Below, in pieces: positions 5,346 through 8,414 of a DNA stretch of 64,000 nt. The notes below the pieces were generated by a model. It was not told the origin of the DNA, did no database searches, and worked only from the letters and a program-made list of their open reading frames with translations. Each line of letters begins with the position of its first letter. Position 1 is the first letter of the stretch. The DNA is from Cordylochernes scorpioides (Eukaryota; Arthropoda; Arachnida; Pseudoscorpiones; Chernetidae), in NCBI GenBank assembly GCA_030710605.1, contig CP092877.1, positions 496,001 to 560,000 of the forward strand. Reading direction: 5' to 3'. Made by a program: the position numbers and the translations under genes.

Positions 5346-5662
5346 TGAGATAAGAGGATGCCAGCGGGCGACGCTGGCACGGGACGCCGGGAATTCTGCG
5401 AGCTGGCCAGCCGGCCTGCGCGCGCACCGGGGGCTGCGCGCGCACTTTTCGAACACCGCCTGATCTCGCTGGCTGTTTACCGCGCGTCGCTACAACCTGC
5501 GGCGTTTCCTTCTATTTTATAATACTCTAGGCGCTGGTGGAGTAAAAACTGTACTCCACCTGCCTCTTATAATTGTATGTAATTTTTGGACTTATTAAAA
5601 TATAAATTATTAATTTATAGTTCTCACTGCAGCTCGAACCTTTACCCTAACGCGGTAGAACA
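5346..5662 (+). repeat. 317-bp 5' LTR of the KH element
   Basis: It runs from TGAGATAAGAGG to GCGGTAGAACA, starting TG and ending CA. It is preceded by CTGGC. The first half is very GC-rich (CGCGCGCACCGGGGG region) and the second half AT-rich. Confidence 0.93.
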
Positions 5663-5681
5663 TGGCGCAGTCGACATTCGG
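5663..5681 (+). promoter_or_regulatory. Primer-binding site of the KH element
   Basis: TGGCGCAGTCGACATTCGG starts immediately after the 5' LTR. The leading TGGCGCAGTCG resembles the PBS of Drosophila 17.6/297-type elements, which are primed by a tRNA-Ser. The tRNA assignment is from memory of those families and was not tested here. Confidence 0.65.
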
Positions 5682-5732
5682 TTAATTATAGCCGTTTTTT
5701 AAGTGACAGCTCAGTGACAATTAGTAATCAAG

Positions 5733-6389
5733 ATGCCCTCAAGAAGGAATCGCCGACCATCCCAAACCCCTCCAGAGAACCCTGCCTCGCCGACCAGCAC
5801 CGACATCCTCAGGTCCATAGCCGCACTGTTGCAGCAGATGGCTACTCGGAATCCGACACCGACAGTCCCATTAGGAGCTCCTCCTCACCACGCCACAAAA
5901 ATCATCCAGCTTCCTAAACTGGCTTCCCCGGAGAAGTTAACGATGTCTTTTTTCCGCGATTGGAAACAACGTTGGAACGACTACGTGGACGCCCAACAAG
6001 TAGCCACCTTCCCGCTATCCACACAGCAAGTGACTTTGCGTGCCGCCCTCCATTCCGAATGGACCATCCTTTGGCAATCAGGCCGCCTTCATATTTCTAC
6101 CACCACCACCCTCGATGAAGCCGTGAATGCTCTCGAGGCCTACCTACGCAAGAAGCGAAACCCCCTCCTTGATCGGCAAGATTTTCATCGTAGGGACCAA
6201 CAAACCGGAGAATCGGTGGATCGCTACTTCGCAGCCCTTAAAGCTCTTGATGACTCGTGTGCACATGAGCTGGATTTTAAGTGCAGCACATGCGGCGACC
6301 CGTGTATTACAAGATGCACAAAAGAGCTTGTGGGAAAACGTTTGCCCTTGCTGGTTATCAACAGCAACTCCGTATCCGTGACAGGTTAA
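5733..6389 (+). CDS. gag: Gag N-terminal part of the KH element
   Basis: The frame starts at the first ATG after the PBS, about 70 bp downstream of the 5' LTR, and codes 218 residues. A proline-rich N-terminus is followed by a capsid-like helical region (FFRDWKQRWNDYVDAQQVAT at about residue 75, then a DRYFAALKALDD segment). This is the usual layout of insect Gypsy Gag proteins. The same Gag domain continues in the -1 frame (6281-8215), beginning around TFALAGYQQQLRIRDRL. The switch is either a one-base mutation or a programmed -1 frameshift: the heptamer G GGA AAA sits in the right phase at 6332-6338. After it, the zero frame runs only 17 codons to a stop. Confidence 0.75.
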   Translation: MPSRRNRRPSQTPPENPASPTSTDILRSIAALLQQMATRNPTPTVPLGAPPHHATKIIQLPKLASPEKLTMSFFRDWKQRWNDYVDAQQVATFPLSTQQVTLRAALHSEWTILWQSGRLHISTTTTLDEAVNALEAYLRKKRNPLLDRQDFHRRDQQTGESVDRYFAALKALDDSCAHELDFKCSTCGDPCITRCTKELVGKRLPLLVINSNSVSVTG

Positions 6390-8215
6390 TATGTGGCCTG
6401 TTTGATAAAGACCTCCAACGAAAAGTACTGGCGGAGCAGTACAATTCCGACCTCTCCCTGGACCGAGTCCTCTCAATTTGCATCGCACATGAGAGTGCTA
6501 CCGCCGTGGGCGCGACTCTTTCACCCTCCCCAACCACCTCCCCCGAAGCCTTCATTGCAACCAGACGTGCACCATCAACCTACAAGCATCAACAAGCCAG
6601 CTCGTCTGAAACCTCACCTAAGGCCAACCGTTTCTTTCAGAAACCCCATGATCCTAACGACCCCTGCTCCGGATGTGGGGCTAACCCAAGACACCGCCGT
6701 GACCAGTGCCCAGCAAAAGACATAGAGTGTAACAAATGCGGCATCACCGGGCATTACGGAAGAGTTTGCCGACAACTGAAACGGAAACCCACAACCAAAC
6801 CTAATATCCCGCCACCCGCAACCAGAAACAATCAGTCCCAACCAGGACCCTCAAACACAGTTGTTGCAGCTGGAGTACGCAACGAACTCATAACCATTCC
6901 GACCGATATCAACCATAAGTTACACCAAATCCGTTGGCTGGCGGACCCGGGGTCAGATCTGGATCTAATCCCAGAATCAGAATTCCTGTTACTGGATGAG
7001 CAGACCCGATCAGCACTCAACCCGAAGAACGTCCCTTGCGTAGGAGCCAACGGCATCAGCTTAAGTCCTTGTGGATCGTTCGTCGCGGCACTGCATCTCA
7101 ACGGGAAAACATACAGTACTACCGTTGGAGTCTGCAAGCACCTGAACGCCCCTCTCTTGAGCAAGAGCGGATGCAAAGCCTTAGGACTTCTGCCGGATAA
7201 CTGGCCCCATTCAATGATCGTCAATGCCATAACCAACGGACAAGTTCTAACGTTCCCGCCGACCCCGGTGAGAGCCAATGAGATCGATAAGCAGTCTATC
7301 CTTACCCATTATGCTAGAGCGTTCGACGACACATTGTTAAAACCCATGCAAGGACCCCCCATGTCTATCGAACTAGTTAAAGATGCCGTTCCTTGCAAAC
7401 GCTACCGGGCATACAACGTTCTCTTTCACTGGAGAGACCCCGTCAAAACTCAACTCGATACCATGTTGGCGAAAGGGATAATCGAACAGGTACCCGTCGG
7501 CGAAGCCATCGATTGGTGCCATCCTATGGTAGTCGTCCCGAAAAAAGGCTCATCACAAGTCACTATACCAAATGATCTCGCCGGTGCCATCATTGGGAAA
7601 GGTGGTCAACGCATCAGGAAGATCCGGCGCGAGTCTGGTGCGGGGATCACCATAGATGAGTCTCAACCTGGTAGCAACGAACGGGTCATCACCATCTCTG
7701 GCACGCCCCAGCAGATCCAGATGGCCCAGTACCTCTTGCAGCAAAATGTAAGAGAACATTCCTTCCGGAAGCGATACAATCGCAACGCCAAGCCACTCTC
7801 ACATTTGGAAGTGGGAGCAATAGTCCTTGTCCAGGATCACCGCACAAAACATTGGACCCTCCTTGCTGAGGTTCTCGAACAACTTCCACGCGGTCGCAGC
7901 TACCTCATCCGGACCGACGCCGGACGCCTTCTTCGCCGTAATCGCAGATTCTTACGACCTTTCGTGCCTCCACCGTACACCACCCCACCCAACTCAGCTC
8001 AACATCAGCAGACCTTATCCCCTCGAACCCGAGAACCGAACCCGCGTTATAGCAACTACGTTGGATCGGTCCCAAGTCCCAATCTCCAGGGGGGGCATGA
8101 GATAAGAGGATGCCAGCGGGCGACGCTGGCACGGGACGCCGGGAATTCTGCGAGCTGGCCAGCCGGCCTGCGCGCGCACCGGGGGCTGCGCGCGCACTTT
8201 TTGAACACCGCCTGA
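6281..8215 (+). CDS. Gag knuckles, protease, partial RT, KH domain and integrase tail fusion
   Basis: The 644-codon frame lies at -1 to gag; the listed start is only the first ATG. In order it has: the end of Gag (to about 85); two CCHC knuckles (about 129-163, the second CNKCGITGHYGRVC); an aspartic protease with DPGS at about 222-225 in place of the usual D(T/S)G; an RT N-terminal region ending HPMVVVPKKG at 423; a KH domain at about 425-490 with GKGG at 439-442; then the integrase C-terminus (VLVQDHRTKHWT..., ending RRNRRFLRP at about 560). RT motifs, RNase H and the integrase DDE core are missing. No stop interrupts the KH junctions. The C-terminal 39 codons are translated LTR. Confidence 0.85.
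   Translation: MQHMRRPVYYKMHKRACGKTFALAGYQQQLRIRDRLICGLFDKDLQRKVLAEQYNSDLSLDRVLSICIAHESATAVGATLSPSPTTSPEAFIATRRAPSTYKHQQASSSETSPKANRFFQKPHDPNDPCSGCGANPRHRRDQCPAKDIECNKCGITGHYGRVCRQLKRKPTTKPNIPPPATRNNQSQPGPSNTVVAAGVRNELITIPTDINHKLHQIRWLADPGSDLDLIPESEFLLLDEQTRSALNPKNVPCVGANGISLSPCGSFVAALHLNGKTYSTTVGVCKHLNAPLLSKSGCKALGLLPDNWPHSMIVNAITNGQVLTFPPTPVRANEIDKQSILTHYARAFDDTLLKPMQGPPMSIELVKDAVPCKRYRAYNVLFHWRDPVKTQLDTMLAKGIIEQVPVGEAIDWCHPMVVVPKKGSSQVTIPNDLAGAIIGKGGQRIRKIRRESGAGITIDESQPGSNERVITISGTPQQIQMAQYLLQQNVREHSFRKRYNRNAKPLSHLEVGAIVLVQDHRTKHWTLLAEVLEQLPRGRSYLIRTDAGRLLRRNRRFLRPFVPPPYTTPPNSAQHQQTLSPRTREPNPRYSNYVGSVPSPNLQGGHEIRGCQRATLARDAGNSASWPAGLRAHRGLRAHFLNTA
7553..7750 (+). other. Captured KH domain, hnRNP K KH3-like
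   Basis: About 66 residues form one complete KH fold: a QVTIP first strand, LAGAIIGKGGQRIRKIRR helix-GXXG-helix, a GAGITID strand, a variable loop, a VITISGT strand and the final helix QIQMAQYLLQQ. GKGG is the RNA-contacting GXXG loop. The wording is what I know of the third KH domain of hnRNP K (bancal in Drosophila); poly(C)-binding proteins are the nearest alternative. It replaces RT from just after VVVPKKG and joins the integrase tail near REHSFRKRYNRN. A GTAAG donor-like string lies at the 3' edge (7748-7752). No known Gypsy pol has a KH domain at this position, to my knowledge. Confidence 0.88.
8088..8095 (+). promoter_or_regulatory. Polypurine tract of the KH element
   Basis: A run AGGGGGGG, then CA, lies immediately upstream of the 3' LTR start (TG at 8098). 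This is where plus-strand priming occurs in LTR elements. Confidence 0.75.
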
Positions 8216-8414
8216 TCTCGCTGGCTGTTTACCGCGCGTCGCTACAACCTGCGGCGTTTCCTTCTATTTTATAATACTCTAGGCGCTGGTGGAGTAAAAA
8301 CTGTACTCCACCTGCCTCTTATAATTGTATGTAATTTTTGGACTTATTAAAATATAAATTATTAATTTATAGTTCTCACTGCAGCTCGAACCTTTACCCT
8401 AACGCGGTAGAACA
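8098..8414 (+). repeat. 317-bp 3' LTR of the KH element
   Basis: It is identical to the 5' LTR apart from one base. The pol-frame ORF runs about 39 codons into it before stopping at 8213-8215. Confidence 0.93.

What the first reader, a model, noticed from the sequence alone, without database searches (positions are those of the whole stretch)
5346..8414. A recently mobile LTR retrotransposon has captured a host KH domain (hnRNP K KH3-like)
Seen: one open frame goes from Gag knuckles through protease and the start of RT, then in frame into a full KH domain (GKGG loop at 7595-7606), then into the integrase tail. LTRs of 317 bp differ by one base and a CTGGC TSD flanks the unit. Known: retroviruses transduce host coding sequence by template switching during reverse transcription; hnRNP K KH3 binds C-rich RNA. 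Inferred: the chimera formed by recombination between element RNA and an hnRNP K transcript, and was later moved in trans. The result would be a Gag-protease-KH protein able to bind RNA, possibly its own genome. I know of no described Gypsy element of this design.
Basis: partly seen in the sequence, partly recalled or inferred. Interest (0 to 1): 0.93.

Follow-up and report, generated by a model that had tools for sequence, protein, structure and literature searches.

The report
Retrotransposon carrying a host RNA-binding domain
In what is very probably a pseudoscorpion genome, a jumping element related to retroviruses lost its copying enzymes, carries in their place a piece of a host gene for an RNA-binding protein (hnRNP K), and seems to have spread to several places, showing how mobile DNA can shuffle host protein domains; whether the fusion protein does anything is unknown.

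Summary
Window 5346-8414 is a non-autonomous Ty3/Gypsy-type element: two 317-bp LTRs differing at one base, CTGGC target duplications, primer-binding site, polypurine tract, Gag zinc knuckles, protease region and RT start. It then runs in frame into a complete KH domain and on into the integrase tail. The KH is hnRNP K KH3: E 8e-26 to human hnRNP K structures, 61 of 73 residues to scorpion hnRNP K. Six Cordylochernes scorpioides gene models, on five contigs, carry the same RT-KH junction; three of the six also show the KH-integrase junction. An assembly accident is therefore unlikely. A pol-bearing relative in that species (P0139) has 724 residues of RT, RNase H and integrase where this element has KH. 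Best explanation: capture of an hnRNP K mRNA end by template switching, then mobilisation in trans. Function is not shown: Gag is out of frame in this copy, the protease motif is DPG, KH varies as much as Gag-protease-RT, and C-runs are not enriched. The host hnRNP K gene and the DNA of other copies could not be reached.

The parts
5341..5345 (+). target-site duplication, left copy (CTGGC)
5346..5662 (+). 5' LTR, 317 bp, TG...CA
   Evidence: one mismatch to the 3' LTR
5663..5673 (+). primer-binding site directly after the 5' LTR (TGGCGCAGTCG); complement of a tRNA-Ser 3' end by recall, not tested
   Evidence: sequence shown; tRNA assignment recalled
5733..6389 (+). N-terminal Gag frame from its first ATG to its stop; the frame is lost before the zinc knuckles in this copy
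   Evidence: aligns to P0121 and P0122 at 94.7 and 95.6% identity up to ORF1 residue 211
6281..8215 (+). 644-codon open frame: Gag C-terminal part, protease region, RT start, KH, integrase tail; stop lies in the 3' LTR
   Evidence: Pfam KH_1 E 6.4e-21
6665..6709 (+). first zinc knuckle, CX2CX5HX4C
6728..6769 (+). second zinc knuckle, CX2CX4HX4C
6938..6958 (+). protease active-site region, DPG in place of DTG/DSG
   Evidence: DPG in 10 of 10 C. scorpioides sequences that cover it, window included
7514..7546 (+). element-derived stretch before KH, start of RT (WCHPMVVVPKK)
   Evidence: native continuation seen in P0139 and P0126
7550..7771 (+). captured hnRNP K KH3 domain; the first two serine codons may belong to element or host
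7595..7606 (+). GKGG loop of the KH domain
7772..7963 (+). integrase C-terminal tail of the element
   Evidence: ORF residues 488-589 align to P0139 831-931
8088..8095 (+). polypurine tract before the 3' LTR
   Evidence: sequence shown
8098..8414 (+). 3' LTR, 317 bp
8415..8419 (+). target-site duplication, right copy (CTGGC)

Best explanation
A K02A2.6-like Ty3/Gypsy element of the pseudoscorpion Cordylochernes scorpioides packaged an hnRNP K mRNA. Reverse transcriptase moved from the element RNA into the 3' end of the hnRNP K coding sequence and back (two template switches), so KH3 replaced the RT-RNase H-integrase core in frame. The resulting LTR-gag-protease-KH-integrase-tail element kept its LTRs, primer site and polypurine tract. 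It was then copied and inserted at several sites by enzymes supplied in trans by full-length relatives. Shown: the anatomy, the KH identity, recurrence of the junctions in other gene models, and a pol-bearing relative that breaks away at the same residues. Inferred: mRNA as donor, template switching, trans supply, independent insertion of the other copies. The KH is most likely a passenger that reads in frame; no role is shown.
For: LTRs, TSD, PBS and PPT are present. KH3 matches hnRNP K best: PDB 1zzi E 8e-26; scorpion 61 of 73 residues. The top 3 hits, all C. scorpioides, are 100, 99 and 98% identical over 99-100% of 116 residues across both junctions. Three more models carry the 5' junction. 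P0001 aligns without a gap to window ORF residues 121-644 at 99%. The window aligns to P0139 on both sides of the KH (312-435 to 1-124; 488-589 to 831-931); P0139 has RVT_1, RNase H and rve domains and 724 residues between the breakpoints. Scorpion hnRNP K ends ...REHSGRKF and the chimera reads REHSFRK-RYNRN, so the insert ends at or next to the host protein's C-terminus. Passages of PMC5408686 describe this template-switch route.
Against: The native hnRNP K gene of C. scorpioides was not among the named rows shown (120 of 256; 120 of 1406), and the genome could not be searched, so lack of introns is untested. Breakpoint microhomology was not seen at DNA level. Junctions in other copies rest on gene models: P0121-P0123 leave the KH at one internal point and do not show the 3' junction, and P0002 and P0003 skip part of the RT start. 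No LTRs or target duplications were seen at other copies. P0139 does not cover gag or protease, so no complete autonomous copy was seen.
Confidence: 0.76

Rival explanations
1. DNA-level capture: an hnRNP K exon, or a cDNA fragment, filled a break inside an integrated element, and the chimera then transposed as usual.
Against: It needs a repair patch that is in frame on both sides and ends at the hnRNP K C-terminus; template switching during copying is a described route for LTR elements (PMC5408686 passages). This is an argument, not a test.
Confidence: 0.15
2. The KH domain is a working part of the element, kept by selection, for example helping Gag hold RNA or interfering with host hnRNP K.
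For: In frame on both sides; complete KH_1 match with GKGG loop; no stop in the KH as far as each of the 6 models reads it; hnRNP K is needed for silencing of endogenous retroviruses in mouse stem cells (PMC4303303 abstract).
Against: Amino-acid differences among 7 copies are as frequent in KH (5 of 483 cells) as in Gag-protease-RT (23 of 2412), and none was counted in the integrase tail (0 of 335). Runs of C are not enriched in the element RNA. This copy's Gag is broken. Gene prediction favours open frames, so openness is a biased sign.
Confidence: 0.12
3. Assembly or annotation artefact.
For: Repeat-rich region; several gene models of this species fuse unrelated exons (P0125, P0127).
Against: In the window the junctions are continuous DNA between LTRs with target duplications; 6 distinct models on 5 contigs repeat the 5' junction and 3 of them repeat both.
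Confidence: 0.03
4. A host gene (annotated HNRNPK in 3 models) that took up Gag sequence and became domesticated.
For: P0002, P0003 and P0122 are named HNRNPK by their source.
Against: LTRs that differ at 1 of 317 bases, target duplications, dispersed near-identical copies and broken Gag here point to a young mobile element; these models match hnRNP K only at KH3.
Confidence: 0.02

Closest known systems
Bs1 of maize
   Same: LTR element that took up host gene pieces by transduction (PMC5408686 and PMC7264820 passages). By recall, it also lacks RT and fuses gag-derived sequence in frame to a host gene.
   Different: Plant element with pieces of three cellular genes; by recall Ty1/Copia-like and with enzyme-coding pieces. 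Here a Ty3/Gypsy-type element of an arachnid carries one RNA-binding domain in place of the pol core.
Acute transforming retroviruses (gag-onc fusions), recalled
   Same: Defective genome, host coding sequence in place of pol or env, often fused in frame with gag, moved by a helper.
   Different: No infectious virus, no growth selection known, no env found in the frame; the donor is an RNA-binding domain.
Phalaenopsis Ty3/Gypsy elements with an AlkB m6A demethylase (PMC9289625, abstract and passages seen)
   Same: Gypsy element with a host-type RNA-acting domain retained over several rounds of replication.
   Different: Large (25 kb) element with an additional ORF and activity tested in vitro; here the domain replaces the pol core and activity is untested.
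Pol-bearing relatives: P0139 of C. scorpioides (named K02A2.6-like) and P0126 of Orchesella dallaii
   Same: Same RT start and integrase tail; P0126 also shares Gag and protease.
   Different: They keep RT, RNase H and integrase and have no KH.
hnRNP K KH3 (PDB 1zzi, 1j5k)
   Same: Sequence over 70 residues including the GKGG loop.
   Different: Here it lies inside a retroelement frame without KH1, KH2 or the linker.

Membership tests
LTR retrotransposon | paired LTRs with TG...CA ends and target-site duplication | tested here: met
LTR retrotransposon | primer-binding site and polypurine tract next to the LTRs | tested here: met
   read from the sequence; tRNA identity recalled only
Autonomous Ty3/Gypsy element | RT, RNase H and integrase core in the pol frame | tested here: not met
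   at E up to 1, one search lists 6 families in the frame, all of KH type; 724 residues of P0139 are missing
Ty3/Gypsy family (K02A2.6-like), by descent | Gag, RT start and integrase tail closest to elements with RT-RNase H-integrase order | tested here: met
   no RT tree was built
hnRNP K KH3 | best match to hnRNP K KH3 rather than other KH proteins | tested here: met
   4 hnRNP K chains rank first of 37 PDB sequences, E 8e-26 to 1.4e-24, against 1.5e-22 for Nova-1; directly after the 3 chimeras come hnRNP K proteins of two scorpions
hnRNP K KH3 | binds C-rich single-stranded nucleic acid | not testable with these tools
Transducing LTR element (Bs1 type) | host coding sequence between LTRs, flanked by element sequence on both sides | tested here: met
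Transducing LTR element (Bs1 type) | host segment without the introns of its source gene | not tested
Transducing LTR element (Bs1 type) | chimera multiplied by transposition | tested here: inconclusive
   6 further models on 5 contigs, but no LTR or target duplication seen for them

The most novel reading that the evidence does not exclude
The KH domain gives this non-autonomous lineage an advantage: a Gag-protease-KH protein, made from copies with an unbroken gag, grips C-rich RNA or competes with host hnRNP K, thereby improving packaging or weakening silencing, and so drove the spread of the chimera.
Probability: 0.1. Interest if true: 0.85.

Novelty: new variant of a known kind. Interest (0 to 1): 0.56.

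Why it matters
Uptake of host sequence by LTR elements is documented in plants, and LTR-mediated retrocopies are reported in animals (PMC5408686 passages). A review notes that such transduced pieces usually sit in one or a few copies (PMC7264820 abstract), so a chimera in at least seven copies is notable. To my knowledge (recall) few animal cases keep LTRs, both junctions, a likely parent and several copies together. The steps capture, amplification and decay could thus be dated in one genome. If the fusion proved functional, it would be a retroelement that recruited a domain of a protein which, in mouse stem cells, is needed for silencing of endogenous retroviruses (PMC4303303 abstract).

Tried and rejected
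Self-RNA binding: patterns in 5663-8097 (31% C) were compared with 500 dinucleotide shuffles. CCC 71 observed, 83.8 expected; CCCC 19 against 27.7; TCCC 16 against 19.1; TCC-to-CCC pairs 9 against 9.8; CCATC 7 against 5.0 (118 of 500 shuffles as high); most C in any 30 bases 19 against a mean of 17.6. No clear enrichment, so no support.

Selection on KH: amino-acid differences from the column majority were 5 of 483 cells in KH, 23 of 2412 in Gag-protease-RT and 0 of 335 in the integrase tail, over the window and 6 gene models. Only ungapped aligned parts and columns covered by at least 3 copies were used. Left out: residues before 14; P0123 after residue 489, where its model leaves the element; P0002 after 607; P0003 after 519, where it reads another frame, so its broken tail is not in the 0 of 335; and the N-terminal Gag frame. 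Three differences in P0003 next to a model splice may be splice artefacts and were left in. KH is not more constrained than Gag-protease-RT. Without DNA of the copies no silent changes could be counted.

Other captures: P0125 (PKN2) and P0127 (NIP7) looked like further captured genes. Their host parts sit upstream of an element part and look like gene-model fusions, so they were not counted. Not proven either way.

Origin tree: 28 KH3 rows gave weak support. The chimera falls in an unresolved group with scorpions, Tachypleus, a millipede, a springtail, spiders and three nameless rows (78/94); the arachnid label given to the program was not one clade, needing 4 changes. It fits an arthropod donor but does not prove the own host gene.

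Literature: searches (10 of 10), of which only the listings were seen unless a read call is named. No title or abstract start in these listings describes an hnRNP K KH domain in an LTR element; the pair pseudoscorpion + LTR retrotransposon gave 0 papers. Passages were seen of PMC5408686, PMC7264820, PMC9289625 (40, abstract 39) and PMC6338049 (the term KH domain occurs 0 times there); of PMC4303303 the abstract. Two papers on Bs1 and LTR-mediated retroposition are not held.
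Full report
What is there. The unit 5346-8414 is bounded by two 317-bp LTRs with one mismatch (LTR position 105) and by CTGGC on both sides. A primer-binding site follows the 5' LTR and a polypurine tract precedes the 3' LTR. A blastn search of the LTR and the body at E 1e-3 found no further copy in the 64-kb window. Gag begins in the frame 5733-6389 and continues in another frame, 6281-8215. 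The second frame holds two zinc knuckles, a protease-like region, the start of RT, a KH domain and an integrase C-terminal tail. Gene models of two other copies (P0121, P0122) read Gag without the break, so the break looks like a later defect of this copy.

Whose genome. The closest proteins are gene models of the pseudoscorpion Cordylochernes scorpioides, with 100, 99 and 98% identity over 99-100% of 116 residues that span both junctions (taxonomy). That assignment is by identity; the window itself is unnamed.

What the KH is. Residues coded by 7550-7771 match hnRNP K KH3: PDB chains 1zzi and 1j5k at E 8e-26 and 9.9e-26, ahead of Nova-1 at 1.5e-22. The nearest proteins other than the chimeras are hnRNP K of two Centruroides scorpions, 61 of 73 residues. 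The tree of 28 KH3 rows is weak; it puts the chimera on a short branch (0.04) in an unresolved group with scorpions and other arthropods. Scorpion hnRNP K ends ...REHSGRKF. The chimera reads ...REHSFRK and then the element's RYNRN, so the insert ends at or next to the C-terminus of hnRNP K.

The chimera is multi-copy. Of the 10 C. scorpioides models that searches listed and one search checked, 6 carry the RT-KH junction (P0001, P0002, P0003, P0121, P0122, P0123) and 3 of these (P0001-P0003) also show the KH-integrase junction. P0001 follows the window frame without a gap from residue 121 to 644 at 99% identity; P0002 and P0003 skip part of the RT start, probably predicted introns. The contig lengths show five contigs; P0001 and P0121 share one but have different locus tags. 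P0121-P0123 leave the KH at one internal point, where the window DNA reads GTAAGA (7748 onward). The likely reason is a predicted splice site, and their 3' junctions are unseen. The window copy differs in protein sequence from each of the six, which makes at least seven copies. That the others are separate insertions is inferred; their DNA was not seen.

The parent. P0139 of the same species has RT, RNase H, integrase zinc-binding and integrase core domains. The window frame aligns to it at 312-435 and again at 488-589. P0139 reads KKGSS-EPRV where the chimera reads KKGSS-QVTIP, and ALKRYNRN where the chimera reads FRKRYNRN; 724 residues lie between these points in P0139. Its model does not include gag or protease, so no complete autonomous copy was seen. 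More distant relatives without the KH motif include proteins of Orchesella springtails, a sponge and a copepod.

Mechanism. A host segment flanked on both sides by element sequence, inside LTRs, with the pol core missing, is what two template switches between packaged element RNA and a host mRNA would leave. The route is described for LTR elements in PMC5408686 (passages). That the donor was mRNA is inferred, since the host gene could not be examined: 14 requests to the genome search did not complete, and no native hnRNP K of this species was among the named rows shown (120 of 256, 120 of 1406). Mobilisation by enzymes in trans follows from the absence of RT and integrase in a copy with near-identical LTRs and target duplications; it is inferred, not shown. 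One difference in 317 bp (K about 0.0032) means a young insertion. With a rate of about 3e-9 per site and year, recalled for flies and not calibrated here, that is roughly half a million years.

Does the KH do anything? The domain is complete and in frame on both sides. Against a role stand four results. This copy's Gag is broken. The protease motif reads DPG in 10 of 10 C. scorpioides sequences that cover the site, 3 models without KH included, against DTG or DSG in the 6 of 6 relatives from other sources that were checked. KH differences among copies are as frequent as in Gag-protease-RT. Runs of C are not enriched in the element RNA. I take the KH as a passenger unless data on silent changes say otherwise.

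Comparison. By kind this is transduction of host coding sequence by an LTR element, as in maize Bs1 (PMC5408686, PMC7264820, passages) and, by recall, in acute transforming retroviruses. A Ty3/Gypsy element with a host-type RNA-acting domain is known from orchids (PMC9289625, abstract and passages). New here, as far as the listings of the ten literature searches show, is an hnRNP K KH domain in place of the pol core of an animal Ty3/Gypsy-type element that is present in several copies.

Noticed in passing
window 6938-6958 and P0001, P0002, P0003, P0121-P0125, P0127: The protease motif of this family reads DPG in all 10 C. scorpioides sequences checked that cover it, including 3 models without KH, where the 6 checked relatives from other sources read DTG or DSG. 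A family with an apparently altered protease site deserves a look.
   Followed up: partly
P0125 and P0127 (not in the window): Two models on different contigs, annotated PKN2 and K02A2.6-like/NIP7, join host sequence to this element and skip from before the RT to the integrase at the same residue. This may be a shared predicted intron or a second internal-deletion derivative.
   Followed up: no
window 7748-7753: A GTAAGA inside the KH tail is where three gene models leave the KH domain; a possible cryptic splice donor carried in by the capture.
   Followed up: partly
window 11504-15922, minus strand: Long open frame of a BEL/Pao element (Peptidase_A17, DUF5641), with a frame holding DUF1759 and an RT at 16203-18839 next to it.
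   Followed up: partly
window 42494-44269: 592-aa open frame of a transposase with DDE_1, HTH_Tnp_Tc5 and CENP-B_N domains.
   Followed up: partly
window 51892-53169, minus strand: 426-aa ankyrin-repeat protein in one uninterrupted frame in a region rich in mobile elements.
   Followed up: no
window 62546-63880: Ty1/Copia-type RT (RVT_2) frame.
   Followed up: no
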